DNA of 64,000 nt, taken from positions 22,740-86,739 of the IMG/VR virus record IMGVR_UViG_3300021960_000046. The stretch is one strand, 5' to 3'. Numbering within the stretch: the stretch's first letter is position 1; each line of letters begins with the position of its first letter. Shown here piece by piece: positions 43,474 through 57,560 of the stretch. Below the pieces are notes generated by a model, which saw nothing but the letters and a program-made list of their open reading frames with translations, had not been told where the DNA came from and did no database searches. This stretch comes from a virus. The position numbers were made by a program, and so were the translations under genes.

Positions 43474-44160
43474 TTATTTTATCTTCGGAAAGAGATTATC
43501 TGAGCAGAATAACTTTATATCATCTTCAGGCAAACCAAGTGATTCCATTACTCTAGGAGTGTGTGGATTTTGCTGTTGGTTCTCACAATAGTAGTTTTGT
43601 GCTTCAATTACATCATTTTCCTCACTATCGCCATTATATGAACCTATCATATTTAGATAAGCAGAAAGGTTACCTATTGCAATATCACATATATTCTTTA
43701 ACTCAACAATATCTTGTACATTGCCAGCCGCTATCATACCACCGCTGAATATTCTCTTAGCCCAATCAGGCAATTCTCGTTCTTTACTAGGTTTAAAATC
43801 TTTAACTTCGTTAATAAACCACTTTGTTAATGGATGTTCTTTCTGTAATAAAGGAGAAAAATCATGGAATGCACCAGTAACTTTATTCTTACCTGCAATT
43901 ACATCAAAACCATAAATTGGTCCACCATTTGTTTTGTTTGGAAATAAACATACATGCATCATCCAAAGTTTCTTACTATCTCTTACATCAACAACATCAA
44001 CATGAGCTCTTCGTACATTATTATTTTTCCATGTTCTATTGACCCAGCCATATTCTGGATTGTTAAATCTTTCCATACCTGGTTCATCATACTCTTCACA
44101 ATGACGGTCTAATAAATCGACCATCTTGTCTTTACAATTAATTAAAGTTTCCCAAATCAT
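43474..44160 (-). CDS. pcyX: ferredoxin-dependent bilin reductase (PcyX-like)
   Basis: 228 residues, the size of viral bilin reductases. The N-terminal half carries WKNNNVRRAHVDVVDV, MMHVCLFP, YGFDVIAGKNKVTGAFHDFSP; the Asp of HDFSP (D100) corresponds to the catalytic Asp of the PcyA/PebS family. The C-terminus has PHTPRVMESLGL and SDNLFPK like other members. It reduces biliverdin, taking electrons from ferredoxin. PcyX-type enzymes next to heme oxygenase have been reported from uncultured marine phages thought to infect alphaproteobacteria and make phycoerythrobilin. It starts with AAGGAAATGC before ATG and overlaps the heme oxygenase gene by 23 nt. The exact bilin product is inferred. Confidence 0.9.
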   Translation of the reverse strand: MIWETLINCKDKMVDLLDRHCEEYDEPGMERFNNPEYGWVNRTWKNNNVRRAHVDVVDVRDSKKLWMMHVCLFPNKTNGGPIYGFDVIAGKNKVTGAFHDFSPLLQKEHPLTKWFINEVKDFKPSKERELPDWAKRIFSGGMIAAGNVQDIVELKNICDIAIGNLSAYLNMIGSYNGDSEENDVIEAQNYYCENQQQNPHTPRVMESLGLPEDDIKLFCSDNLFPKIK

Positions 44161-44722
44161 GCATTTCCTTCATTTCTTTAAACAACATTGTTGCACTTTC
44201 AAAACAATATCTAGCTTCTGCTAAAACATTAATTTGATAAATGTTCATGTACATATTAACTCGTTCTTTTACAATTCGTTTATACTCTATAACTTCAGTA
44301 TTTGTAAATCTATAATATCTATTAGGACCTGGAGTTTTCTTTCTAATCATTTGACCGCCAGATAAATCTCCTAAATGTCTTACATAGATATGTGCATATA
44401 ATTTTTCTGCACTTTCTGAGATAGACTTAATATGTTCTATATATTTGTTTGTACTTTCGGTTAACGGTGGTTTACCATTTTCATGGTTCCATAAAGCATT
44501 GTAATCGTAATGTAATGCTTCACTTCTAGGTAGTGAATTTAAATCTTTAAATAGCGATAGTTGTTGTGCGTGTTTTTCTAATTCAGAATAACAAGCTAAC
44601 TGGTTGTACAAATAACAAGCATATAATTGTTTGTTAATATTACCAGACATTAATATTCTCACAAAGTCCTGGCGTTCAGCGTCTTTGTGGTGTTCCATTG
44701 TCAATTCTTTTATATCATACAT
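44138..44722 (-). CDS. ho1: heme oxygenase (HO-1 type)
   Basis: 194 residues. Proximal His in LTMEHHKDAERQ (H11/H12), a YACYLYNQLACYSELE helix, and the distal-helix signature YVRHLGDLSGGQM (GDLSGGQ at 118-124). It opens heme to biliverdin, releasing CO and Fe(II). Together with the downstream reductase it forms a two-step heme-to-bilin route. It overlaps the upstream oxygenase by 8 nt. Confidence 0.97.
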   Translation of the reverse strand: MYDIKELTMEHHKDAERQDFVRILMSGNINKQLYACYLYNQLACYSELEKHAQQLSLFKDLNSLPRSEALHYDYNALWNHENGKPPLTESTNKYIEHIKSISESAEKLYAHIYVRHLGDLSGGQMIRKKTPGPNRYYRFTNTEVIEYKRIVKERVNMYMNIYQINVLAEARYCFESATMLFKEMKEMHDLGNFN

Positions 44723-45326
44723 ATATTTTATAGTCCATTGCTATAGAAATTCTATCATCATCACTTTGATTTTGTTCCACCTCATGTTTAATGTGAGCTG
44801 GAAAAATGATAAATCTTCCTGGTTTAGGTTTGTAAAAATATCCAAAACTATTTAGATTGTTAGAATTGCTTTGTTTTAAATACAAATCATTAAACTCCAT
44901 TCTAACATCTGGTGATTTTAATACTAAGTTACCAAGTTCTTTATTTTCATCACCTTTTATAAAGAATACTACTGAAAAATTTGATGTGACATGTGAATGT
45001 TCTGGTGCATAATCTCCAGGTTTGTTTACATTAATCCACGCAGCTGTTAAATCTACTTTTCTAGGTGTCTTTATGTTTAATACATCAGCAAAGCCATTTA
45101 CATGAGGTTGTATAAAGTCTGTAAATTTTTTTAATATAGTTTCTTTACTTAACTCTTCATTGAATTTAGACTTAGTATTATTAATAAATTCAACTTGGTG
45201 TCCTGAAACATTACCCTTATGACCTAAATGTTTATATGCCAATTTTTCAATAGCACTAATCATATCAACATCTTCACATTGTCCTATTGCTATTGGTGTT
45301 ACAAATGCTGGTACAATATCAATCAT
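44715..45326 (-). CDS. 2OG-Fe(II) oxygenase-like protein (PF13759-like), no. 8
   Basis: 203 residues from the ATG that overlaps the upstream stop as ATGATTGA; a longer in-frame extension lies within the neighbour and has no ribosome site. AAWINVNKPGDYAPEHSH (H110-x-H112), FSVVFFIKGD, then GRFIIFPAHIKHEV (H181) and DRISIAMDY (R192). Coupled on both sides inside the redox island. Confidence 0.86.
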   Translation of the reverse strand: MIDIVPAFVTPIAIGQCEDVDMISAIEKLAYKHLGHKGNVSGHQVEFINNTKSKFNEELSKETILKKFTDFIQPHVNGFADVLNIKTPRKVDLTAAWINVNKPGDYAPEHSHVTSNFSVVFFIKGDENKELGNLVLKSPDVRMEFNDLYLKQSNSNNLNSFGYFYKPKPGRFIIFPAHIKHEVEQNQSDDDRISIAMDYKIYV

Positions 45327-45999
45327 CAAACGAATACCATCCGGTTGCAATATATTTTTCATGTTTCTCTGATATAACACCTCTGTGTATGTGTGTCCAA
45401 TCAGTAGGCCAAAATACGGTTAATCCTTTTTCTGCCTGTAAAGTTACATTCTGATATTTCCAATGTGTGCCACCGTCTGGTACATCATTTAAATAAGTCA
45501 TAAAAACTAAAAATCTTTTAGCAGATTCCACACAATCTCTTTCAAAGTGATTAACTTTATAACCACCTCCTGGAGGATAGTATTGTAAATTAGTTGTCAT
45601 ACCTCTAAGTGACCAAGGTGTGGTCATATTAGTTTCTGGATACAAAGGGAAGAAGTTTTTTAAAGCAGCTTGTAGTTCTCTATGATAAGCAACAATCCTT
45701 TTATCTTGGTTATCAATTGTAAATCCACATTCAATACTATCTTTTCTTTCTTTGTTTACTTGTCGTTGACCAAAAGCACCTGGTTCTTTCTCAGGATTTT
45801 CTTTATACCATTCGATAAGTCCATCACAAATACTATTGTCATTCATATAAAAACCAGCAATAAACTTTTCTGGTTGTGAATTTATTTCATGTGGTCGTCT
45901 TTTATTCTCATCACTTAAAGTAACATGTGTAAATTTGTTATCATCACTTAAATGAGGAAATTTCCTACCATACATTTCTGTGCCATCATTTATAGTCAT
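45319..45999 (-). CDS. prolyl-4-hydroxylase-like 2OG-Fe(II) oxygenase, no. 9
   Basis: 226 residues from the ATG preceded by GAAGGTAAAG. Double-stranded beta-helix core: YYPPGGGYKVNHFERD with H151-x-E153 (HxE in place of the usual HxD), FMTYLNDVPDGGTHW, then FWPTDWTHIHRGV (distal H203) and KYIATGWYSF (K215 for 2-oxoglutarate, as in P4H). Different subgroup from the other oxygenases. HxE is less usual in hydroxylases. It overlaps the halogenase by 14 nt. Confidence 0.85.
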   Translation of the reverse strand: MTINDGTEMYGRKFPHLSDDNKFTHVTLSDENKRRPHEINSQPEKFIAGFYMNDNSICDGLIEWYKENPEKEPGAFGQRQVNKERKDSIECGFTIDNQDKRIVAYHRELQAALKNFFPLYPETNMTTPWSLRGMTTNLQYYPPGGGYKVNHFERDCVESAKRFLVFMTYLNDVPDGGTHWKYQNVTLQAEKGLTVFWPTDWTHIHRGVISEKHEKYIATGWYSFDD

Positions 46000-47581
46000 C
46001 TTTACCTTCAAAGAATTCATCTCGTAAAAACTCATAAGTTGATTTGAGTTTAGAAGCTTGTTCTTCCCAATCCCTTCTTCTACTATCTAATCTAGTTGTT
46101 ACTTCGTCCCAAGAATTATGATAATGCCTTTTATCAGAATTACAATTTTCTTGTGCAATTCTATGAAAGTCATGTACAAACCATCTCATACCTGGAGCAA
46201 TACATTGTAATCCCTCTGATAGTTCCCAACGACCATCTCTTTTTCTTCTAAAGGAATCTTCAAAAGCATTTCCCTTTTTAACAGGCCATTTTTGAGACCA
46301 TTGTCTTCTTTGAACATCTTGCCAATATGGCGTATCTTCTCTATTTGATAATGAGTAATGCATAGCCACGAAAGCCGCAAAACCATCAAACATTTTACTA
46401 GTTAAGAAGTTATATTCTTCTCTATCATACTCTGTGTATTTGTCTCTTTCACCACCAATTTTAGCCACTAAATGTCTTAAAAATTCATGTACTGAATATA
46501 GTCCATTACTTTCTAGTGGTTCAATAAAACCAGCAGATAAACCAATAGCGACAACATTATTGACCCACATTCTTTCGTGTCGACCAACTCTCATTTTAAT
46601 TTTCTTAAATTCTAATTCTTCTACAGGTACACCACTATAGTTTTTATCTTTAATGAATTGTTTAAACTCTTCTAAAGCATTTTCATCACTAATATATTTG
46701 TCTGAATAAACATAACCTGTACCCCAACGAGTCCATAAAGGAATTTTCCATACCCAACCATTATTATGTGCAATACAATCGGTGTATAGATTAATTTCTT
46801 TTTCTTTATCTTTATAAGGCAGTCTTGTTGCCCAAGCTGAGTTGTTTGGCAATACATCAGCAAAGTCAATAAACTTTTCACCTAATGCTTTGCCTAGTAA
46901 TAATGATTTGAAACCTGTACAATCAATCCATAAGTCAGCTTCATACTTGTCTCCGTTTTCTAATACAACGGATTCTACATTATTGTTTTCATCTGTGATT
47001 ACATCTGTAACATCACCTAATACATGTTGTACACCTTCGGGAATACAAACCTCATCTTTTAAGAATAAACCAAACTTAGTTGCGTCAAAATGATACGCTT
47101 TATCTTTATTATAATTAAAATTAGGAAAGTTTTCTCCTAATGTGTTTTTATTAACCATAGCCATTTGAGAATAGTTTGTATCTGCAAAATCAGTTACAGG
47201 AGTATCAGGTAAAAAACATTTTTTATAATACCAATCATTTGTGCCATCTCTGTTACCAAATGTCACAGGTAATCCAAAAGGATAATGAAACCCACCATCA
47301 TTGACATCATAGAAATTTTCAAAACGAATACTTAGTTTAATTGTTCCGTCTGTGTGCTTTACAAATCTTTTAGGATCATTCAATCCAATTAATTCTAACC
47401 AATTAGAAATACCACCAATTGTACTTTCACCAACACCTACGGTTGATATATTAGGACTTTCAATTAGTGTAATCTTGGTGCCTGGTTTACAGGTTCTAAT
47501 CAGAGTAGCCGCTGTCATCCAGCCTGCACTTCCGCCACCTACGATTTTAATGTCATTGTATTTGTTGTATAGTTTACTCAT
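45986..47581 (-). CDS. prnA-like: FADH2-dependent tryptophan-halogenase-like enzyme
   Basis: 531 residues. FAD-binding VGGGSAGW (14-21), ESTIG, catalytic Lys in TIKLSIRFENF (K82), the family signature GWVWKIP at 275-281 and FIEPLESNG near 355. These enzymes form HOCl at the flavin and a Lys chloramine that halogenates Trp or other indoles/pyrroles. Such genes are known in marine T4-like phages; their substrates are unproven. No flavin reductase is seen in the window. The gene overlaps the upstream oxygenase by 4 nt (ATGA) and has GAGGAAAAA as ribosome site. Confidence 0.94.
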   Translation of the reverse strand: MSKLYNKYNDIKIVGGGSAGWMTAATLIRTCKPGTKITLIESPNISTVGVGESTIGGISNWLELIGLNDPKRFVKHTDGTIKLSIRFENFYDVNDGGFHYPFGLPVTFGNRDGTNDWYYKKCFLPDTPVTDFADTNYSQMAMVNKNTLGENFPNFNYNKDKAYHFDATKFGLFLKDEVCIPEGVQHVLGDVTDVITDENNNVESVVLENGDKYEADLWIDCTGFKSLLLGKALGEKFIDFADVLPNNSAWATRLPYKDKEKEINLYTDCIAHNNGWVWKIPLWTRWGTGYVYSDKYISDENALEEFKQFIKDKNYSGVPVEELEFKKIKMRVGRHERMWVNNVVAIGLSAGFIEPLESNGLYSVHEFLRHLVAKIGGERDKYTEYDREEYNFLTSKMFDGFAAFVAMHYSLSNREDTPYWQDVQRRQWSQKWPVKKGNAFEDSFRRKRDGRWELSEGLQCIAPGMRWFVHDFHRIAQENCNSDKRHYHNSWDEVTTRLDSRRRDWEEQASKLKSTYEFLRDEFFEGKDDYK

Positions 47582-48150
47582 TTTTTCCTCATATAGTTTA
47601 TATTCATAATTACTCTACGGTCTTTATCAGTTTGAGTAAAAGCCGAGTGTACTAAATTGCCATCAAATAGAATTAATCTATTTTCTTTTGTTTCGAATTC
47701 TTTATCGCCAATAATACTAGCACCATTGTCACTAGTAAAACATAGTATGCCTGTTATATATTCAAAATTATTATTGGTTGTTTCGTAAAAATCTGTATGT
47801 TTAGCTAGATATTTTACTTTGTTTTGATTTGTGTACAGATTTAACTTCCACTTCAAAGGTTCACCAATAGGAACATTATGTTCATGTAAGGCGTCTGTTA
47901 TAGGGAAAAAGTTTCTGTACATATCACTAGTAGGACCTTTAGGTGTAAGAAGAACATTATGTAACATAAATGTTCCTACATCTTTAGTATCTACTTTTGT
48001 GATTGTGGGGTCTTGTGGGTTATAATCAAAGTCGGACCAATGCCAAGGAAAATCAATCCCTAAGACAAAGTTTTGTAACCTGTTAAATGTGTGTTTTGGA
48101 AGGAAGTCATCAATACACTTCACAAATCCATTATCAAAATTATCAATCAT
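47578..48150 (-). CDS. 2OG-Fe(II) oxygenase-like protein (HxD type), no. 10
   Basis: 190 residues. FPWHWSD near residue 34, KHTDF (H118-x-D120), ITGILCFTSDNGASI, distal LVHSAF (H168) and RRVIMNINY (R178/R179). First gene of the redox island; the ATG at 48150 has GGATAAATAATATT upstream, which may serve as ribosome site. Confidence 0.85.
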   Translation of the reverse strand: MIDNFDNGFVKCIDDFLPKHTFNRLQNFVLGIDFPWHWSDFDYNPQDPTITKVDTKDVGTFMLHNVLLTPKGPTSDMYRNFFPITDALHEHNVPIGEPLKWKLNLYTNQNKVKYLAKHTDFYETTNNNFEYITGILCFTSDNGASIIGDKEFETKENRLILFDGNLVHSAFTQTDKDRRVIMNINYMRKK

Positions 48151-48189: not shown

Positions 48190-48648
48190 TTAGATGTCTG
48201 TTTGGTCTTCCCACTCGTTAGTGCTAGGATTCCATCTATACCAAGTAGTCATTTCACCTGTTTTTTTCGCATACCATCTATTAGTAAGTTCACTCCATTT
48301 CATACCTGAATATGTATTACCATTGCTGGTTGTTTCATATTGATGAGGTGCAACCCAATCGCCAATAGTTTTATCAATTCTCCAACTTGTACAAGGATTG
48401 CCGTTCAAATCTTCATATAAATCTGGATGAAAACATTTTAATTCAGCATTCCAATTACTACCTTTATTGGCTTCTCCATTTACATTACTAAGATTAGCAA
48501 TATAAGTTCCTGCACCAAAAGTTTTAATACAATATTGTTCTACTTTTTCTTGTGTGATAGTACCGGTAGCATCCATACCATAGTTTCTGTTAATAGAAAA
48601 AGTATTTTCTACTTTGTCGTTACTATCTAATTTTGCAACTTCTATCAT
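48190..48648 (-). CDS. fibre-cassette Trp-rich protein, copy 1
   Basis: 152 residues. Starts IEVAKLDSNDKVENTF, has a Cys/His/Trp-rich middle (CFHPDLYEDLNGNPCTSWRI, WVAPHQYE) and ends with repeated Trp patterns (RWYAKKTGEMTTWYRWNPSTNEWED). Homologous to copies at 50045-50494 and 51892-52356, each lying directly after a Gly-rich fibre gene. It could cap or bind the fibre tip or act as an adhesin or assembly factor; not recognised by family. Confidence 0.75.
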   Translation of the reverse strand: MIEVAKLDSNDKVENTFSINRNYGMDATGTITQEKVEQYCIKTFGAGTYIANLSNVNGEANKGSNWNAELKCFHPDLYEDLNGNPCTSWRIDKTIGDWVAPHQYETTSNGNTYSGMKWSELTNRWYAKKTGEMTTWYRWNPSTNEWEDQTDI

Positions 48649-50036
48649 TAAATTCTACCTTTATATCTGATTACTACTATACCGTCTGCGCCTTTACCGC
48701 CATAGTGAAGTTGTGAAGCGTTACCATCACATCCTCCGCCACCGCCGCCTGTGTGTTCTTCGGCCATTGCACCGCCACCTTGAGCACCGCCACCGTGTCC
48801 GCCACCAGCAGCTGAAGTATGATTGTGACCGGATGCGCCGCCACCACCTGCATACCAAATATCTCTGCCTGTAATATCATTTCTTTCACCTCTACCGCCG
48901 TGGCCACCTTCGTGGTGACCGTAATTGTCAGAACCTCTTTGATGAGCACCACCGCCACCACCGTGTGTATGACTTTCGTGGGTACCACCTCTGTTACCTG
49001 AACCTTGTCCGTTAGCATTTCCATGAGTATGACCATGAGCAGCACCTCCGCCTGAACCACCGTCTCGGCCTCTGGAGTTACTTGAACCTCCTCCGCCACC
49101 GCCACCTGATACCATGCCGTCAAATGTTGATGAACCGCCATCATGTCCGTGTGAGTTAGATGTTCTTTGTGAACCGCCTGTACCAACTACAACTGCGTAA
49201 TTTTGTGCTGTAATGGCATAATTTTTTGAGTTGTTTGCTCTGTATCCACCAGCACCACCGCCACCTGCGTGGTGTGTACCGCCTGAACCGCCACCGCCAA
49301 TGATTAGATATTCAATCTTATCACCTAATACGGAATCTGTACCTAGAGCATGTACTTTAAAAGTACCTGATGTTAAAAACTTGTGAACAACATCATCGCC
49401 GTCTATATAAATTTCTTCAGCGTCTGAGGTAGCAATTGGCCATCTTCGTGAGCCAACATTTTTAACTGCAACACCTCTATTTGTTTGACCGCCTAATTCT
49501 TGGTTATAATCTGATTGAAATTTAGTAACTCTCCAACCACCATCACCTGAAATACCGTCATCAAAAGTAAATTCTACAACTGCACCTTTTTGATGAATAA
49601 CCCAATCGTCTGGTTGTCCTTCAATTAATTGTCCACTTCTATTAATAGTTACAGGATTTTCAGAGAAAGTTCCTCTGTAATCCGAAATCTGAATTTGGTC
49701 ACCTCTTTGAGGAGCTGCTGGAAATGTAATCGTAACAACACCGTTTGTTGTATCTACAAAGTATGCGTTTTCACCTGTAGCAGAAAAGTTTGATGTTCTA
49801 ATGGTATTGTGCGCCATTTTTTCGGCTGCCGTACCTTTAGACATATATCTCCAATAAGTGGAGTTTTCTGCTTCACCTGTCGCTGGTGCTTGATTTGTGT
49901 GACCTAACACACAAATGAATGTACTCGTAATACCTGAATGTTGGTACTGAACGAAATCATCCACTTCATAAGCAACGGAGTTTTGCCATTGCCCCTGATA
50001 AGTTGGTTTTAATTTGCCTAAGTCTATTGCTGCCAT
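48648..50036 (-). CDS. Gly/His-rich tail fibre adhesin, copy 1
   Basis: 462 residues. Residues 1-75: an attachment module with a WQNSVAYEVDDFVQYQ repeat unit also found in the 1181-residue fibre. Residues about 75-240: beta-rich region (TNGVVTITFPAAP, HKFLTSGTFKVH). From about 245 to the end: poly-glycine with runs of His (GGTHHAGGGGAGGY, AHGHTHGNANGQGSGNRGG, HESHTHGGGGG) closing with the phage-fibre signature GIVVIRYKGR. Poly-Gly sheets of this kind form receptor-binding tips in T4-like fibres. Overlaps the Trp-rich gene by 1 nt. Confidence 0.85.
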   Translation of the reverse strand: MAAIDLGKLKPTYQGQWQNSVAYEVDDFVQYQHSGITSTFICVLGHTNQAPATGEAENSTYWRYMSKGTAAEKMAHNTIRTSNFSATGENAYFVDTTNGVVTITFPAAPQRGDQIQISDYRGTFSENPVTINRSGQLIEGQPDDWVIHQKGAVVEFTFDDGISGDGGWRVTKFQSDYNQELGGQTNRGVAVKNVGSRRWPIATSDAEEIYIDGDDVVHKFLTSGTFKVHALGTDSVLGDKIEYLIIGGGGSGGTHHAGGGGAGGYRANNSKNYAITAQNYAVVVGTGGSQRTSNSHGHDGGSSTFDGMVSGGGGGGGSSNSRGRDGGSGGGAAHGHTHGNANGQGSGNRGGTHESHTHGGGGGAHQRGSDNYGHHEGGHGGRGERNDITGRDIWYAGGGGASGHNHTSAAGGGHGGGAQGGGAMAEEHTGGGGGGCDGNASQLHYGGKGADGIVVIRYKGRI

Positions 50037-50044
50037 TTTTTTCC

Positions 50045-50494
50045 CTATTCTGTTACTTCAATCCAAGTTTGTGTAGCAGTATCCCAATAACTTTGTTTAG
50101 AAGTCTCAACCATTTGTGATGGATAAGAATACCATTTTTGTTCTGCTTCGTCCCAATCAAATTTAGCTCTATTGGCTTCATCTTTGAAAGGACCTATCCA
50201 AAAACAATTCTCATTTAATGTCCATGAATTGCAAGGGTTGCCGTTTCTATCTACAGGTCTAGGACCATGAAAATGTCTATCTTCAGCATGCCATATATCA
50301 TCTACACTAGGATATGTACCTGCCATATCATCTGTGTATAGTATATATGTTCCTGCACCATTTACTGCTTCAGCAAATGCTTGTGCTTTTGTTTGTGATA
50401 CTACACCAGTAATATCTGCAATTTTTTTAGGATTAGCAGTTATAACCTGTGTTACTACATTGTTCTCATCAATTTTTGCTATGTAATTTGCCAT
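50045..50494 (-). CDS. fibre-cassette Trp-rich protein, copy 2
   Basis: 149 residues, related to copy 1: NYIAKIDENNVVTQVI start, GPRPVDRNGNPCNSWTL in the middle, and KWYSYPSQMVETSKQSYWDTATQTW at the end. The Trp pattern is kept while most other positions differ. It directly follows Gly-rich copy 2 (2 nt gap). Confidence 0.73.
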   Translation of the reverse strand: MANYIAKIDENNVVTQVITANPKKIADITGVVSQTKAQAFAEAVNGAGTYILYTDDMAGTYPSVDDIWHAEDRHFHGPRPVDRNGNPCNSWTLNENCFWIGPFKDEANRAKFDWDEAEQKWYSYPSQMVETSKQSYWDTATQTWIEVTE

Positions 50495-50496
50495 AT

Positions 50497-51867
50497 TTAT
50501 CTAACCCTATATCTGATTACTACTATACCATCACCGCCGCCGCCACCTCGTCTGTGACCACCAGAAGTACCATCTGTACCTCCGCCACCGCCTCCGGTAC
50601 CGTTAACTCCGTATCCACCGCCTGCTTGGCCTCCACCACCTTCACCGCCTGCTGGGCATGAAGTGTGATTGTGTCCGGCTGCGCCGCCACCACCTGAGTA
50701 GTGTTGTGGAATTCCTGTAATATCGTTTTCGTAGCCTCTGCCACCGTGACCTGCCATGTGGTTACCATAATGGTCTGCACCTGGTTCAGCAGCACCGCCT
50801 CCGCCACCACCATTGTGATGTCCGTTTGAACCGCCTCTATGACCTTGACCTTGTCCGTTTGCGTCACCGTGTCCGCCTGTGTGATTACCACCACCGCCAG
50901 AACCACCTGAACGACCACCGCCGTTTGGATGTCCGCCACCGCCTCCGCCACCTGCACTTGTTAAACCAAATGCCGTAGAAGCAGAACCAGTTTGTCCGTG
51001 TCCGTCACCGCCGTATTGTGAACCGCCGGCACCAACTACGATTGAATATGCTTGAGCAGTTACAGCTTGTGCGAAAGAGTTATTTGCTCTATATCCTCCT
51101 GCACCACCACCTGCGCCATGGTGTGTTCCACCTGAACCACCGCCACCTACAATTAGATACTCGACTACATCGCCTAATGCGGAATCTGAACCTGTTGAAT
51201 GTACGGTAAATGTGCCAGATGTTAAAAACTTATGTACCATATCTCGGCCATCTAAGTAAACTTCTTCGGCATCCGAAGTAGCAACTATATATCTTTTAGA
51301 ACCTAATCCTTGATGTCCTTTTGTTTTTAAACCTGAATTTTCTTCGTTACTATAAGTAACAAATTTCCAACCTTGACCACCTGTACCATTGTATGCTAAT
51401 TCTATAACGGTACCTTTTGCATTTAAAACAAAATCATCAGGTTCGCCTTCAATCAATGAACCGTTACCTGCTAATGTACAAAAATTAGTGTTGAAAGTTT
51501 TTGCGTAATCTATAATTTTTAAATATGTGCCATCACTAGGTGCTGATGGTAATGTAACCGTAATTGCACCACTTGAAGTATCTACAAAGTAAGCACTTGA
51601 ACCTGAAGCTGTAAAATCTGCTGTTGAAACTGATTGATAAGCAATAGCAATCTGGTCAGTACCTTTTGCCATAAATTTCCAGTAAGTAGAATTTTCTGTT
51701 CCACCAGTTGCTGGAATTTGGCCTGTACTATTTGTAACAGCAATAAATGTACTTAAAGTACCACCATCTGAATATTGTACGATATCGTCTTTCTCGTAAG
51801 CAGTGCCAGACGACCAAGTACCTTTGGGCGTTAATGCTAATTTTCCTAAATCAATTTGTATTGCCAT
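50497..51867 (-). CDS. Gly/His-rich tail fibre adhesin, copy 2
   Basis: 456 residues with the same three-part design as copy 1: WSSGTAYEKDDIVQYS attachment unit, beta-rich middle with HKFLTSGTFTVHS, and a glycine-rich C-terminal third (GGTHHGAGGGAGGY, GGSGGGGNHTGGHGDANGQ, GHNHTSCPAGG) ending GIVVIRYRVR. Fewer HxH pairs than copies 1 and 3, and a distinct Gly-rich loop order, so tip specificity probably differs. Confidence 0.85.
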   Translation of the reverse strand: MAIQIDLGKLALTPKGTWSSGTAYEKDDIVQYSDGGTLSTFIAVTNSTGQIPATGGTENSTYWKFMAKGTDQIAIAYQSVSTADFTASGSSAYFVDTSSGAITVTLPSAPSDGTYLKIIDYAKTFNTNFCTLAGNGSLIEGEPDDFVLNAKGTVIELAYNGTGGQGWKFVTYSNEENSGLKTKGHQGLGSKRYIVATSDAEEVYLDGRDMVHKFLTSGTFTVHSTGSDSALGDVVEYLIVGGGGSGGTHHGAGGGAGGYRANNSFAQAVTAQAYSIVVGAGGSQYGGDGHGQTGSASTAFGLTSAGGGGGGGHPNGGGRSGGSGGGGNHTGGHGDANGQGQGHRGGSNGHHNGGGGGGAAEPGADHYGNHMAGHGGRGYENDITGIPQHYSGGGGAAGHNHTSCPAGGEGGGGQAGGGYGVNGTGGGGGGTDGTSGGHRRGGGGGDGIVVIRYRVR

Positions 51868-51891
51868 ATTTTTTTTAACCTATCCTATTTA

Positions 51892-52356
51892 TTATAGCTC
51901 CGTGCTATTAGTATCTACCCATGATTGTGTACTATTGTTCCAAGTCCACCAAGTGTTATATTCCACACCTGCTCTTTGAGCATACCAAGTAGCATTACTT
52001 TCTCTCCAATTAAATTTTTTCATAGTGATTGTGCCATTTGCACCATATTGGTGTGGTGCTTGCCATTCGAATTCTGTATTAGAATATGTCCATGAAGCAC
52101 ATTCAACACCTTCAATATCTTTAGGTCTGATATCTCTAAAAGAGTTTGAGGCTGCATGATATTCCTGGCCAATTTCAGGTGAAGTGTTTGTATGCATATC
52201 ACATTTGTATGTATAACCTTCGCCCCATAATTTTGTACAAACAGCATTAATGCTATGATGTGTACATGAACCTGTAGATTTGTCAATACACTTTTCAACT
52301 TTAAGAATATGAACATCTACTACTTTATTATTACTATCTATTTTAGCTACTTTCAT
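51892..52356 (-). CDS. fibre-cassette Trp-rich protein, copy 3
   Basis: 154 residues: KVAKIDSNNKVVDVHIL start, a Cys-rich segment (CTHHSINAVCTKLWGEGYTYKC), ECASWTYSN and WQAPHQYG like copy 1, and WYAQRAGVEYNTWWTWNNSTQSW end. Directly follows Gly-rich copy 3 (1 nt gap). The extra Cys pairs are unique to this copy. Confidence 0.73.
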   Translation of the reverse strand: MKVAKIDSNNKVVDVHILKVEKCIDKSTGSCTHHSINAVCTKLWGEGYTYKCDMHTNTSPEIGQEYHAASNSFRDIRPKDIEGVECASWTYSNTEFEWQAPHQYGANGTITMKKFNWRESNATWYAQRAGVEYNTWWTWNNSTQSWVDTNSTEL

Positions 52357-52357
52357 A

Positions 52358-53728
52358 TTACTTAACCTTATACCTAATTACTACTAGTCCTGAACCGCCA
52401 GCGCCACCATAGTTTGCTTGACCTGTAGAACCATCTGTTCCACCGCCACCACTTCCACTAAATGGTTCTGCACTACCGCCATTTCCTGAACCGCCGCCAC
52501 CTAAGCCGCCGCCACCAGGACCTCCGTGTTGATGTGTTCCTGCACCACCGCCTCCACAATACCAACGATTTTCGCCTGTAATGTCTGAAGCTGTACCGGA
52601 TCCACCGTTACCACCCATGTGATGTCCGTATTGGTCACCACCTCTAGTGTATGAACCGCCACCACCGCCATGAGTATGACTTTCGTGGTTACCACCTCTG
52701 TTACCTGAACCTTGTCCGTTTGCGTTACCATGTGTGTGATTGTGTCCCGAACCACCACCTGAAGCACCATCTCGGCCTCTTCCAGCATTCGAACCACCAC
52801 CGCCACCGCCACCTGATGTTAAACCAAATGCACTTGAAGAACCTCCGTCATTACCTGTAGTGTTAGAGTATCTTCTATCACCACCAGCACCTACGGTAAT
52901 TGTATATGCTTGTGGCGTAACTGCTTGGTTATAAGCTGCGTTATCTCTGAAACCACCAGCACCACCGCCACCAGCATGGTGTGAACCACCTGAAGCGCCA
53001 CCGCCAACAATTAAATATCTTACATTTGAACCGAAAACGGAATCTGAACCTACTGAATGAACGGTAAATGTTCCTGAACTTAAAAACTTGTGTACCATGT
53101 AATCGCCATCTAAGTAGACCTCTTCTGCGTCTGAGGTTGCGTTAATCCATCTTTTTGAACCAACACCTGGCGATACTGCTTTATCTTTATTATTAATTTC
53201 GTCTGAGTTAAATGAAGTAATCTTCCAACCATTTGAACCTGAAACTGAACTATCATATGTGAAGTACACATGTGTACCTCTACTATTTAAAACCCAATCA
53301 TCCGGTTCACCTTCAATAGTGTTACCGTTTGCAGCTAATGTTACTTGATTAATATGGAATGTTCTTGCTCTATCAATAAATGCAATTTGGTCACCGTTAC
53401 TTGGTGAGGCAGGCATTGTAATTGTAATTGCGCCTGCTGTTGTATCGACAAAATAACCAGTTGAACCTGAAGCTGTAAAACTTGATGTTTCTGGAGCACC
53501 CCATGTCATTGATACTGCGTCTGTACCTTTTGCCATTAATGCCCAATAAGTTGCATTTGGATTACCAGCAGTTGAAGGCACCTGATTTGTACTATTTGCT
53601 ATAGCAATGTATGTACTTGTAACACCTGTATCAGTATATGTAACCATATCGTCAACTTCATAAGCTGTACCGCCTACATAAGCGCCTCGATATTTTACTT
53701 TTAATTTTCCTAAATCTATTGTTGCCAT
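52358..53728 (-). CDS. Gly/His-rich tail fibre adhesin, copy 3
   Basis: 456 residues. Same design; YVGGTAYEVDDMVTYTD attachment unit, HKFLSSGTFTVHSVGSDS middle, Gly-rich tip with GHNHTHGNANGQGSGNRGG and HESHTHGGGGG shared almost exactly with copy 1, ending GLVVIRYKVK. It is the most upstream copy, and with the small gene 53744-53977 heads the cassette series. Confidence 0.85.
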   Translation of the reverse strand: MATIDLGKLKVKYRGAYVGGTAYEVDDMVTYTDTGVTSTYIAIANSTNQVPSTAGNPNATYWALMAKGTDAVSMTWGAPETSSFTASGSTGYFVDTTAGAITITMPASPSNGDQIAFIDRARTFHINQVTLAANGNTIEGEPDDWVLNSRGTHVYFTYDSSVSGSNGWKITSFNSDEINNKDKAVSPGVGSKRWINATSDAEEVYLDGDYMVHKFLSSGTFTVHSVGSDSVFGSNVRYLIVGGGASGGSHHAGGGGAGGFRDNAAYNQAVTPQAYTITVGAGGDRRYSNTTGNDGGSSSAFGLTSGGGGGGGSNAGRGRDGASGGGSGHNHTHGNANGQGSGNRGGNHESHTHGGGGGSYTRGGDQYGHHMGGNGGSGTASDITGENRWYCGGGGAGTHQHGGPGGGGLGGGGSGNGGSAEPFSGSGGGGTDGSTGQANYGGAGGSGLVVIRYKVK

Positions 53729-53743
53729 TTACTCTGCCTAGTC

Positions 53744-53977
53744 CTAGTTATCAATTGTTGCTATTAAGTGACCGTTTGTCGGATCAATTGAAAATACAAA
53801 TCCTGAAGCTGCGAATATTACATCATCAAAGCTTGCCATTTGAGCAGCTGTGATATTTGACGCACCCCCATTAGTTGTAATTACTTGTAAAGTATCATTA
53901 ATGCCGTCACCGTCCGAATCCGTTTTAATGAACCCGTAAACCTCGGCCTTACCTGTAAAATCTCGTAATTCAGACAT
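53744..53977 (-). CDS. small fibre-region protein
   Basis: 77 residues: YGFIKTDSDGDGINDTLQV (a calcium-loop-like DxDxDG segment) and SFDDVIFAASGFVFSIDPTNGHLIATIDN. It is expressed from a late promoter 22 nt upstream. Probably virion-associated; unknown function. Confidence 0.65.
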   Translation of the reverse strand: MSELRDFTGKAEVYGFIKTDSDGDGINDTLQVITTNGGASNITAAQMASFDDVIFAASGFVFSIDPTNGHLIATIDN

Positions 53978-54014: not shown

Positions 54015-57000
54015 TTATACATTCTCTACTAATTTCCATCCATAAGTTGTACCTGTGTAAACTAAACCGACAGCGGCGTTGTCTGTAGATAAAACAAATG
54101 TTTGATTTAAACCCATAACTTTTGCACCGTTACCTTGTACATCACAATTGTTTGTTGCGAAGTTATCTGTTAAGTCCATAATTCTTAATTCATCTCCAAC
54201 TTGAGGTGAAGCAGGCAGTCTAACAATTGCCTTGCCACCAGATGTATCAACAAAACTACGAGAACCAACATCTAAAGTTATAACCGTAGAACCGTCACCT
54301 GTGAGTGTAGCCCAAGGTAAGAAACCACTTAAACCTGTCCATTGTCCTGAGTTGTTGTAACCTTCCCAAGTATTCTTATCAGTATTAAATCTGATACCAC
54401 CTGCAAACAAGTTAATACCTGCATTTGATGGTCTTTGAGCAGTTGTACCAATCGGTACCGTAAAGTGTCCTGGTCCCATACCATTTCTTTGAGTGTATCC
54501 AACAATTGCTCGTTCTGTAGGAACTGAGGTATCGGAATCACCGGCCATGGTTGGGTCAGTTGAAAATTCATTAATAGTTGCGCCAAGTGAAGCACCAATA
54601 GAACCTAGTTGTAATTCTGTCAAACCAGAAAGGTCAAATGCGTCTGCGTTCAATGTCGCAATACCAGTTGACTGCTGGATTCTGAATAAATTACCAACTC
54701 TAAAGTCACCGTTTTGGTCAGTTGAAGAGAAGTAAACTCTACCACCATTTAATTCTACCGTTTCATCATCTTGGTCAGCAGGTTGTGTTACACCTACTGC
54801 GTTTGGATAATTTGTATCAGCAAAAGAACCAGTACCAATATCTAAGAAGTCGTGGCCTGTTAATCTGATATTTGAAAATCTATTTGTTTGACTTATTGTA
54901 GTACCAGGCGCTTTTGCGTCTGAAGCTGTAATAGCAGGATTAACTTTAATAATCGCTGTCTCATTTACTAAGTTTTCTTCGGATACTTGTGTAATTCTGT
55001 AATAGTTTGTATCGCCATCTACAGCACCTGTAAATGCGTTAGAAGCTAAGACAACTACATTAGCAGAACTTAATGTTCCGTCTGTAGATGAAATTGGAAT
55101 TACGAAACCTTGAATACCTGAAGAACCAACCGTTGAAGGAGTTGGTTCACCAAACAATGTTGATAATTGGAAAGTATAAGTTGAACTATCAGCTTTTGTA
55201 CCAGTTACGGTTTCACCTTTTTGGAAATCACCTGTAAGGTTTTCAATGTAAATGTACTTAGCGGATGTTTGTAAATAGAAAATTGTACCTGTTGCACCAG
55301 AAGTATTACCAACTAGTGTTTGACCTAATACTAAGTTATTTTCATCATTTGAACCACCTACGAAAGTTTTGGAATCAAACTCAAGCATTTTACCTCTTGT
55401 TTGATATTGTACAGGAACTTCTTCGTAGTAATTACCATCTGCAACAGCACCTTGTTCTCCGTATGCCATTGAAGAGTTAAGTGAACGAACAAAACCACCA
55501 CCTGTTGCATAAACAGCCTTATCACAATAGTATGTGAAGACTGATACAATCTCTGCACGGCCGTTGTTCAATGCATGAACACCTATACCATCTGAGTTAA
55601 TTTGTGTAAAGTCGTTTGCCAACATTGATTTGTTGGAATTTGGATATGAATATCTATGTAATGCACCATCAATCTCGATACCAGTTGCGTTGGCATTGAT
55701 TGAAGTCATGTTTTGACAATAAGGTGAAGCAGTTGTAATATTACCAGTTGGGTCTAATGAAGTAACTGCCGCTTTTCTTGTACCACCAGTATTTGCTGGT
55801 ATACCTGTCAACCCTTGTGAAGACATTTCTAATAAGTTTGTGTTGTTATTTAACAACCACATTTTAGCTGCATTATTTAATTCTAATGAAGCAACGGTAG
55901 CAGTAATTGTTGCGTTACCGCCAAGTTGTGAACTATCTAAAGTAATTGTTTCGTTTAGTTGATAACCATGACCGCCATGGTAAACAACAACCGTAGGAGC
56001 TGAAGAACCATCTGCTATTACCGAAAGAATACAACCCTTACCATTAAGACTTGATGTAGTATGTTTAAAGTGATAAGAACCTGGAGTACCACCTGTACCG
56101 CCTGTAATATTGTTAAGTGTAGCAATCTGTGTTGAACTGCCTGAAGCAGGTCTAACTTGTGTACTTCTTAAAGATGTACCTTTAACGGTAACACCTGCTG
56201 GAATAACTAATGGTAATTGTTCTCTATAAACACCGTTTGCGATATGAATTGCGTCACCAACTGATACTGAGATTACATCAAAAGTTAAATCAGTTGCGCC
56301 ACCTAATTGTGTACCTGTAATTGTGATTACATCACTAATTGAGTGACCTGAACCGCCATCTGTAATTTCAATAAATGGTGTAGATGAACCATCAATTGTA
56401 ACACGAGCAGTAATATTTGTACCTGAACCAGAAGATGTACCTGTTACATCATTGTAAACACTAGGAACTCCGCCTGTACCACCTGATACATTGTTAAAGT
56501 CTGCAACATCACCAGAAGTCGCTACTGATAATGCTTTGTGAATTGTTCTGAATGGAAATTGTTTTGAACCGTCATATGTATCTTTACCGTTGTTTGCAAC
56601 ATAGATAACATTTCTGTCCTCTGAACCACCCCATAAAATATCTGTACCATTTGAAGTTAAAACTGAACCTCTAGGACCTACACCTAATCTTTCATTGGCT
56701 GTAGAACCTCTAACCATAATATCGCCTCGTCTAGTAAGCACATTGTTACTATCACCTTGCGACATCAAATTCCATTTTGTATTATCTGTTCCTGGTTCAA
56801 CATTCAATACATCATATTCAATACAAATGTATGATGATGTTGAAAATTCTACTACATGACCTTTTTGATATGTTGAAGAAACACTATAGTTGCCTTCCCA
56901 TTTCATACCTTCGTTGATTACTTCCCATTTAGCTGGGTGACTTGAAGGTGTTTGACCTGCTGAAGTATCTACAATACAAACATATGACCAACCACCAAAC

Positions 57001-57560
57001 TGCATTGTATCTCCAGTTTTGTATAGTGTAGCCGCATTGTAATCGCCTGTAGCATTAAAGCCTGTTGTCAATACTTGCCAATATGCACCTGCAACTGGAG
57101 TTTGACCTGAATGGTTTTGTAAAGCTGTGTAAGAATAACCACCATAAGTAACAATATCACCGTCTTGGTAATATGTTGATGGATCCCATGAATTTTCGAA
57201 TTGTAAACCTTCGTTGTAAACTGCAAATTTAGTTAAATCTAAAATGCCTGTATTGTCCGAAGTGTGTTGTGTTGTAACTCTGTATTGTTGAGCACCAAAT
57301 TTTACAACATCATTTAATTTGTAAAAAGTATTAGCTGTATGTTCAGCTGCTATAAATCTTAATCCTTCAGTATGTAAATTCCATTTACCTGAAGTTATGT
57401 CTGAGTAGAAAGCTGGGTCATCTACACCTGATGTATGGTTCGTAACACAAACATATGTATTCGCACCGTATTTTACAATATCATCTACGACATAAGAAGT
57501 AGTGGCTGACCAGTTACCTCTCCATTTGAATTTTAATCTACCTAGTATAAAATCTGCCAT
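54015..57560 (-). CDS. large tail fibre with five N-terminal repeats and a beta-helix-like middle
   Basis: 1181 residues. Residues 1-290 hold five units of the type W..tt.Y..gDiV.yg.ysYvc..ht (for example NWSATTSYVVDDIVKYG, YYQDGDIVTYGGYSY, LYKTGDTMQFGGWSYVC), the same module as the single copy in each Gly-rich fibre. About 320-720: a pectate-lyase-like start (VIYVANNGKDTYDGSKQFPFRTIHKAL) followed by a long Gly/Asn/Ser-rich part typical of parallel beta-helix fibres. C-terminal third has a QNGDFRVGNLFRIQQSTG segment common in phage structural proteins and ends in a short beta domain. Probable long fibre or baseplate spike. It starts 1 nt after the upstream gene. Confidence 0.8.
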   Translation of the reverse strand: MADFILGRLKFKWRGNWSATTSYVVDDIVKYGANTYVCVTNHTSGVDDPAFYSDITSGKWNLHTEGLRFIAAEHTANTFYKLNDVVKFGAQQYRVTTQHTSDNTGILDLTKFAVYNEGLQFENSWDPSTYYQDGDIVTYGGYSYTALQNHSGQTPVAGAYWQVLTTGFNATGDYNAATLYKTGDTMQFGGWSYVCIVDTSAGQTPSSHPAKWEVINEGMKWEGNYSVSSTYQKGHVVEFSTSSYICIEYDVLNVEPGTDNTKWNLMSQGDSNNVLTRRGDIMVRGSTANERLGVGPRGSVLTSNGTDILWGGSEDRNVIYVANNGKDTYDGSKQFPFRTIHKALSVATSGDVADFNNVSGGTGGVPSVYNDVTGTSSGSGTNITARVTIDGSSTPFIEITDGGSGHSISDVITITGTQLGGATDLTFDVISVSVGDAIHIANGVYREQLPLVIPAGVTVKGTSLRSTQVRPASGSSTQIATLNNITGGTGGTPGSYHFKHTTSSLNGKGCILSVIADGSSAPTVVVYHGGHGYQLNETITLDSSQLGGNATITATVASLELNNAAKMWLLNNNTNLLEMSSQGLTGIPANTGGTRKAAVTSLDPTGNITTASPYCQNMTSINANATGIEIDGALHRYSYPNSNKSMLANDFTQINSDGIGVHALNNGRAEIVSVFTYYCDKAVYATGGGFVRSLNSSMAYGEQGAVADGNYYEEVPVQYQTRGKMLEFDSKTFVGGSNDENNLVLGQTLVGNTSGATGTIFYLQTSAKYIYIENLTGDFQKGETVTGTKADSSTYTFQLSTLFGEPTPSTVGSSGIQGFVIPISSTDGTLSSANVVVLASNAFTGAVDGDTNYYRITQVSEENLVNETAIIKVNPAITASDAKAPGTTISQTNRFSNIRLTGHDFLDIGTGSFADTNYPNAVGVTQPADQDDETVELNGGRVYFSSTDQNGDFRVGNLFRIQQSTGIATLNADAFDLSGLTELQLGSIGASLGATINEFSTDPTMAGDSDTSVPTERAIVGYTQRNGMGPGHFTVPIGTTAQRPSNAGINLFAGGIRFNTDKNTWEGYNNSGQWTGLSGFLPWATLTGDGSTVITLDVGSRSFVDTSGGKAIVRLPASPQVGDELRIMDLTDNFATNNCDVQGNGAKVMGLNQTFVLSTDNAAVGLVYTGTTYGWKLVENV

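What the first reader, a model, noticed from the sequence alone, without database searches (positions are those of the whole stretch)
48190..53728. Three tandem adhesin cassettes (Gly/His-rich fibre plus Trp-rich partner)
Three unit copies keep gene order but have diverged; attachment module, beta middle and poly-Gly tip are conserved in layout. This suggests alternative or combined receptor-binding tips and a partner protein specific to each. No reverse transcriptase or template repeat is seen, so it is not a diversity-generating retroelement.
Basis: seen in the sequence. Interest (0 to 1): 0.7.

Follow-up and report, generated by a model that had tools for sequence, protein, structure and literature searches.

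The report
Triple glycine-histidine phage fibres with chaperones
A T4-like aquatic phage carries three tandem copies of a glycine- and histidine-rich tail-fibre tip gene, each followed by a small tryptophan-rich gene that is most likely that tip's own folding chaperone, which suggests a function for a widespread phage protein family that had none.

Summary
Three fibre-partner cassettes lie at 48190-53728 on the minus strand. They have the same gene order, about 1.85 kb spacing, fibres 56-58% identical and partners 30-36% identical. The array is not an assembly artefact: three other phage lineages in IMG/VR carry the same (fibre-partner)x3. In the nearest one, cassettes 1, 2 and 3 are positional orthologues for both genes, so the triplication is old and the pairs travelled together.

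The fibre is an N-terminal module, a T4 gp9/gp10/CBA120-TSP4 XD1-like domain, and a TNF-like plus Gly-rich tip matching the Pam3 fibre gp24 (Z 14.5). The partner belongs to phrog_7759 (no function). Its predicted N-domain best matches the fibre-binding domain of gp25, the chaperone of that same Pam3 fibre (Z 5.1, next 3.2). Its C-terminal part is Trp-hairpins instead of gp25's helical trimeriser. Across unrelated phages this family sits directly downstream of a Gly-rich protein in 46 of 59 non-redundant loci, 14 of 14 independent loci with upstream sequence, and nearly all isolates examined.

Best reading: three receptor-binding tips, each with a dedicated chaperone. Distinctive here: tips with 5.5-8.6% His, against a mean of 0.12% in 187 other phage Gly-rich domains.

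The parts
52358..53728 (-). F1: Gly/His-rich tail-fibre tip, 456 aa; N-module 1-72, XD1-like 73-186, TNF-like + Gly-rich tip from ~187/208 to 456
   Evidence: PF21722 E 1.6e-19; AF2 model and structure matches
51892..52356 (-). P1: Trp-rich partner, 154 aa; starts 1 nt after the F1 stop
   Evidence: phrog_7759 E 3e-8; junction
50497..51867 (-). F2: Gly/His-rich fibre, 456 aa
   Evidence: PF21722 E 8.4e-19
50045..50494 (-). P2: Trp-rich partner, 149 aa; AF2 pLDDT 92.5; residues 1-78 match the Pam3 gp25 N-domain
   Evidence: phrog_7759 E 2.6e-12
48648..50036 (-). F3: Gly/His-rich fibre, 462 aa
   Evidence: PF21722 E 1.1e-24
48190..48648 (-). P3: Trp-rich partner, 152 aa; start overlaps the F3 stop by 1 nt
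   Evidence: phrog_7759 E 2.7e-5
53744..53977 (-). 77-aa protein between the long fibre and F1, beginning like the Gly-rich fibre of phage Mosig (LRDFTGK); kept in the other three lineages
54015..57560 (-). 1181-aa long fibre whose N-terminus and C-terminal XD1-like module are homologous to F1-F3; possible carrier of the tips
47578..48150 (-). 2OG-Fe(II) Asp/Arg-hydroxylase-like gene directly downstream; boundary of the array

Best explanation
Each cassette makes one trimeric receptor-binding tail-fibre tip and its own assembly chaperone. Shown by sequence or structure prediction: (1) the fibre is a modular protein, with an N-terminal attachment module and XD1-like spacer shared with the long 1181-aa fibre, then a TNF-like and Gly-rich tip of the Pam3 gp24 fold; (2) the partner gene starts 1-2 nt after the fibre stop or overlaps it; (3) the partner N-domain most resembles the domain of Pam3 gp25 that grips the TNF-like/Gly-rich junction of gp24; (4) fibre and partner are inherited as a pair. 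Inferred: the two are made in similar amounts by coupled translation; the partner N-domain holds the conserved junction while its Trp-hairpins cover the Gly/His loops; after trimerisation it is released, as gp25 is; and all three tips are assembled on the virion next to the long fibre, giving multivalent or multi-receptor adsorption through His-rich tips.
For: Fibre residues 208-456 match Pam3 gp24 (7yfw Z 14.5, 175 residues, 33% identity) and the Bxb1 tail tip (Z 14.9); residues 73-186 match CBA120 TSP4 (Z 16.0), T4 gp10 (12.7) and T4 gp9 (11.8). Partner residues 1-78 have Pam3 gp25 (7ypx_a) as the best of 633 chains, Z 5.1, rmsd 2.3 over 55 residues, next best 3.2. PMC9608196 reports that the gp25 N-domain binds the TNF-like/Gly-rich junction of gp24 at 3:3 and that gp25 is absent from virions. 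phrog_7759 is directly downstream of a Gly-rich protein in 46 of 59 non-redundant viral loci and within three genes in 55 of 59. The same holds in 14 of 14 loci with upstream sequence from another collection. In Melnitz-2, two Gly-rich fibres each have a phrog_7759 gene, while a separate tail-fibre-assembly (Tfa-type) protein follows a protein that is not Gly-rich. Tfa (PF02413) was not found in any of 24 records searched. Seven of 12 cassettes have exactly stop+1 nt+ATG.
Against: The fold match is moderate: Foldseek alone gives E 3.3, and Z 5.1 is below the level (about 8) at which the aligner's matches are safe. No complex was predicted. The partner lacks the helical trimerisation domain that gp25 uses. 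Gly-rich fibres of the Mosig type have no phrog_7759 neighbour (0 of 17). HTVC023P has four Gly-rich fibres for one partner, so one partner per fibre is not a rule. The mirror-tree signal (r 0.45, rank 48 of 1296) comes mainly from the W/A orthologues.
Confidence: 0.7

Rival explanations
1. The partner is a structural cap: it folds the tip but stays on it in the virion and itself contacts the host, as gp38 does on gp37 in S16-like phages.
For: The partner evolves faster than the fibre (W/A orthologues 40-46% against 63-73%). Within one population a short partner segment (residues ~17-36) is replaced while the fibre stays about 98% identical. Its C-terminal part is an extra Trp-hairpin array with no counterpart in gp25.
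Against: Its N-domain resembles a chaperone that is absent from virions (PMC9608196). Fast divergence also fits a fibre-binding chaperone domain, which that paper calls variable. One partner serves four fibres in HTVC023P.
Confidence: 0.2
2. The three fibres are alternatives, one per virion, kept as a switchable repertoire that recombines between copies.
For: Lineages B and C have fibres that tend to group within their lineage, consistent with occasional exchange or re-amplification. A short partner segment is swapped in lineage C.
Against: No reverse transcriptase was found and no inversion or phase-variation machinery was recognised. All three are intact and in the same order in four lineages. 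W and A keep strict positional orthology.
Confidence: 0.15
3. The fibre-partner linkage is incidental: a small gene that happens to lie in the tail region.
For: phrog_7759 has no assigned function and a few members lack a Gly-rich neighbour (4 of 59 non-redundant loci, some truncated).
Against: The linkage recurs in unrelated phages of different size and type and in a reciprocal search started from a Gly-rich protein (66 of 74 loci). Spacing at the junction is tight.
Confidence: 0.03

Closest known systems
Pam3 gp24 tail fibre + gp25 chaperone (PDB 7YPX/7YFW, PMC9608196)
   Same: Gly-rich tip with TNF-like base (Z 14.5); small partner encoded beside the fibre (Pam3 gp24-gp25 cloned as one segment); partner N-domain fold matches the gp25 N-domain (Z 5.1)
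   Different: The partner C-terminal part is Trp-rich beta-hairpins, not an alpha-helical trimeriser; the fibre N-terminal part is an N-module + XD1, not a helical docking domain; three tandem pairs; His-rich tip
Melnitz-2, HTVC008M, HTVC023P, S-SM1, Bellamy and other aquatic isolates with Gly-rich fibre + phrog_7759
   Same: Gly-rich fibre followed by a Trp-rich phrog_7759 gene; two pairs in Melnitz-2
   Different: No triple one-to-one array in the isolates examined; Gly-rich regions contain 0-1.4% His
T2/S16/PP01 gp37-gp38 adhesins
   Same: Gly-rich distal adhesin; small assembly gene next to the fibre
   Different: In those phages the Gly-rich part is the separate gp38 cap; here it is the fibre's own C-terminus
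Kuttervirus (CBA120) branched tailspike complex
   Same: XD1 module (Z 16) and several receptor-binding proteins in tandem
   Different: No XD2/XD3 domain was recognised; tips are Gly-rich rather than depolymerase beta-helices
Tfa/Caudo_TAP tail fibre assembly chaperones (PF02413)
   Same: Small gene after a fibre; presumed role
   Different: No sequence match; no helical C-terminal domain predicted

Membership tests
Gly_rich_2 (PF21722) fibre tips | Profile match above the curated cut-off | tested here: met
   E 1.1e-24, 8.4e-19 and 1.6e-19, all above cut-off
phrog_7759 | Full-length profile match | tested here: met
   All three partners match over positions ~1-121 of 125
Pam3 gp24-type fibre | TNF-like + Gly-rich distal fold | tested here: met
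   7yfw_a Z 14.5, rmsd 3.0, 175 residues, 33% identity
Pam3 gp24-type fibre | N-terminal alpha-helical baseplate-docking domain | tested here: not met
   Residues 1-72 predicted with low confidence but without a long helix; 73-186 is XD1-like
Tfa / Pam3 gp25-type chaperone | N-terminal fibre-binding beta domain | tested here: inconclusive
   Best match of 633 chains, Z 5.1, rmsd 2.3, 55 residues, next 3.2, but Foldseek E 3.3
Tfa / Pam3 gp25-type chaperone | C-terminal alpha-helical trimerisation domain | tested here: not met
   Model shows only beta strands after residue 49, pLDDT mostly above 85
Tfa / Pam3 gp25-type chaperone | PF02413 sequence match | tested here: not met
   No Caudo_TAP hit for P1-P3 nor in the window's record
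Tfa / Pam3 gp25-type chaperone | Needed for fibre folding, released before maturation | not testable with these tools
   Needs expression and virion proteomics
T-even gp38 adhesin | Separate Gly-rich cap protein on the gp37 tip | tested here: not met
   The Gly-rich domain is the fibre C-terminus; the window's partners are 5-7% Gly
CBA120-type branched complex | XD1 module | tested here: met
   7rej Z 16.0, 106 residues within model range 73-227
CBA120-type branched complex | XD2/XD3 modules that recruit other spikes | tested here: inconclusive
   None recognised in F1-F3; other tail proteins not modelled
Diversity-generating retroelement | Reverse transcriptase | tested here: not met
   No PF00078 match at E<=1 in the 86.7 kb record; the record may be incomplete

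The most novel reading that the evidence does not exclude
The tips form histidine crowns that bind a metal (iron, zinc or copper) on a polyglycine scaffold: about 12-19 His per subunit, roughly 36-57 per trimer, with four His positions invariant and more nearly so across 12 paralogues in four lineages. The phage would adsorb through metal-dependent contacts or metal-uptake receptors. The Trp-rich partner would then be a new class of tail-fibre chaperone, using a Tfa-like grip and a Trp-hairpin sleeve, dedicated to Gly-rich tips across aquatic phages.
Probability: 0.25. Interest if true: 0.72.

Novelty: new variant of a known kind. Interest (0 to 1): 0.56.

Why it matters
Linking the family to Gly-rich receptor-binding tips, with a fold clue to a solved chaperone-fibre complex, gives it a testable role. 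It also offers a marker for finding receptor-binding proteins in phages of very abundant ocean and lake bacteria, whose receptors are mostly unknown (own knowledge). The His-rich tips raise a concrete question about metal-dependent adsorption.

Tried and rejected
Nucleotide similarity to known phages gave only short matches. The A3 partner alignment was too diverse for a collection scan. Partner sequence searches of the PDB gave only chance hits. The weak Pfam hits of partners (Kelch_6 E 0.37; an enterotoxin family E 0.017, below cut-off) were rejected as chance. The F2 hit to CBM_5_12 (E 0.03) is below cut-off; the long fibre carries real copies. A link of 2OG-Fe(II) oxygenases to the cassette was tested on 149 neighbours: 6 + 6 Pfam hits, present but not general. 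Diversity-generating retroelement rejected. A fibre-partner complex could not be predicted with the tools, and the Pam3 gp25 sequence could not be fetched for a direct sequence comparison.

Full report
OBSERVATION. The window is part of an 86.7 kb virus record of a T4-like myophage: sheath gp18 domains, T4-type terminase, B-family polymerase, and synteny with Pelagibacter phage Mosig from the long fibre through 2OG-Fe(II) oxygenases, heme oxygenase and bilin reductase to the neck genes. At 48190-53728, minus strand, three fibre genes (456, 456, 462 aa) alternate with three small genes (154, 149, 152 aa). Fibres are 56-58% identical and partners 30-36%, far above shuffled sequence. Repeats recur about every 1.85 kb.

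NOT AN ARTEFACT, AND OLD. Contigs L004, L011 and L018 together repeat the region from the same population: their partner and fibre proteins match those of the window. L014/L102 (41,990-base contig), L016/L103/L017 and L105 (26,828-base contig) are three other lineages with the same layout: long fibre, a 76-77 aa gene, (fibre-partner)x3, a 192-228 aa gene and a 517-537 aa gene. In lineage A, fibres and partners are positional orthologues of those in the window. Tree support is 100/100, 100/99 and 100/99 for fibres and 100/97, 83/85 and 93/92 for partners. Fibre orthologues are 63-73% identical and partner orthologues 40-46%. Lineages B and C tend to group within themselves, so exchange or separate amplification may also have happened. 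A mirror-tree test gives r = 0.454, rank 48 of 1296 relabellings; with W and A fixed the true pairing of B and C ranks 4 of 36.

ANATOMY OF THE FIBRE. AlphaFold2 on 12 sequences gave mean pLDDT 75.6, with the first 27 residues under 50. Residues 73-186 match CBA120 TSP4 (Z 16.0), T4 gp10 (12.7) and T4 gp9 (11.8), the XD1 kind (domain names from PMC8825819). Residues 208-456 match the Pam3 fibre gp24 (Z 14.5, 33% identity) and the Bxb1 tail tip (14.9). The N-module and XD1 are homologous to the two ends of the 1181-aa fibre upstream, so F1-F3 look assembled from its end modules plus a Gly-rich tip. The XD1 module is the most divergent part between cassettes of one lineage (37-48%); Gly-rich parts are 60-67%.

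THE HISTIDINE-RICH TIP. The 12 tips hold 5.5-8.6% His. His 251, 329, 333 and 370 (F1 numbering) are in all 12, and His 250, 351 and 399 in 11. In 187 other phage Gly-rich domains His averages 0.12%, maximum 1.1%, with no HxH motif. Gly-rich regions of named isolates hold 0-1.4%. By analogy with Pam3, where loop ends between Gly stretches form the distal tip (PMC9608196), several of these His would sit at the tip; this is inference. Metal binding, as in the HxH needle of T4 gp37 (own knowledge), is a hypothesis.

THE PARTNER. All three match phrog_7759, which has no function. AlphaFold2 on 71 sequences gave pLDDT 92.5: a small alpha/beta N-domain, then beta-hairpins rich in Trp. The best PDB match is Pam3 gp25 residues 2-57, Z 5.1, rmsd 2.3, ahead of the next at 3.2; Foldseek alone did not rate it significant (E 3.3). 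The match is telling because gp25 is the chaperone of the very fibre that F1 strongly matches, and its N-domain grips the TNF-like/Gly-rich junction (PMC9608196). The gp25 helical trimeriser is missing. So the partner is not filed as a Tfa/gp25 family member, although it probably works like one.

LINKAGE ACROSS PHAGES. Starting from a phrog_7759 protein whose own neighbours are not Gly-rich (ct2KA10), 80 loci gave 81 family genes in 60 clusters. One per cluster, 46 of 59 with upstream sequence have a Gly-rich protein immediately upstream and 55 of 59 within three genes. A second collection gave 14 of 14 with upstream sequence, gaps 0-51 nt and once 223 nt. A reciprocal search from a Gly-rich protein found the partner nearby in 66 of 74 loci. 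Among isolates the pair is directly adjacent in HTVC008M, HTVC025P, HTVC033P, S-SM1, Bellamy, CRP-207, phiPsal1, Greip and twice in Melnitz-2, and at the end of a four-fibre array in HTVC023P and a three-fibre array in 023Pt_psg01. Melnitz-2 also has a Tfa-type protein following a protein that is not Gly-rich. In S-SSM5 and DSL-LC04 other genes, mostly 2OG-Fe(II) oxygenases, lie between the two. Exception: Mosig-type Gly-rich fibres have no such partner (0 of 17).

MECHANISM. Fibre and partner are probably translationally coupled (stop+1 nt+ATG in 7 of 12 cassettes). The partner is inferred to hold the junction, shield the Gly/His loops with its Trp-hairpins, and leave after trimerisation. Confidence is 0.7 for the chaperone role. 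Whether it remains as a cap (0.2), and whether the three tips share one virion, are open.

NOVELTY. A new variant of a known kind: Gly-rich tip plus dedicated chaperone, here in triplicate, with a different chaperone architecture and His-rich tips. No paper in the searched library names the phrog_7759 family, and a paper on 80 HTVC023P-type genomes does not mention glycine or tail fibres in its main text.

Noticed in passing
45986-47581: A tryptophan halogenase (PF04820, E 2e-105) lies just downstream of the Trp-rich partner array, after one 2OG-Fe(II) gene; genes of the same size with a similar N-terminus sit in the same place in the other three lineages. Whether it acts on the Trp-rich proteins is unknown.
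   Followed up: partly
43474-48150: Cluster of 2OG-Fe(II) oxygenases, heme oxygenase and ferredoxin-dependent bilin reductase in a phage that otherwise resembles a pelagiphage (synteny with Mosig).
   Followed up: partly
53744-53977: The 77-aa protein begins SELRDFTGK, like the N-terminus of the Gly-rich fibre of phage Mosig (ADLRDFTGK); it may be a remnant of an older fibre replaced by the triple array.
   Followed up: partly
L105 6521-6979 versus L106 7991-8365: Two near-identical contigs differ sharply in a short segment (residues ~17-36) of partner P1 while the fibre next to it is about 98% identical; L102 versus L015 also differ near the P1 start.
   Followed up: partly
L235 3030-3935 (Pontimonas phage phiPsal1): The deposited annotation puts genes 022 and 023 in other frames; the likely real gene is a 302-aa Gly-rich frame directly before the phrog_7759 gene.
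   Followed up: yes
L232 2-418 (Pelagibacter phage Greip, annotated gp59 region): The frame directly before the phrog_7759 gene is a Gly-rich tip (42 Gly per 100).
   Followed up: partly
L230 2927-7336 (Methylophilales phage Melnitz-2): Two Gly-rich fibre + phrog_7759 pairs, plus a separate Tfa-type protein elsewhere in the tail region: a cultivable system for testing the chaperone idea.
   Followed up: partly
L006, L008, L063, L081, L086: 2OG-Fe(II) oxygenase genes are sometimes inserted between the Gly-rich fibre and the phrog_7759 gene, or lie directly before the latter.
   Followed up: partly
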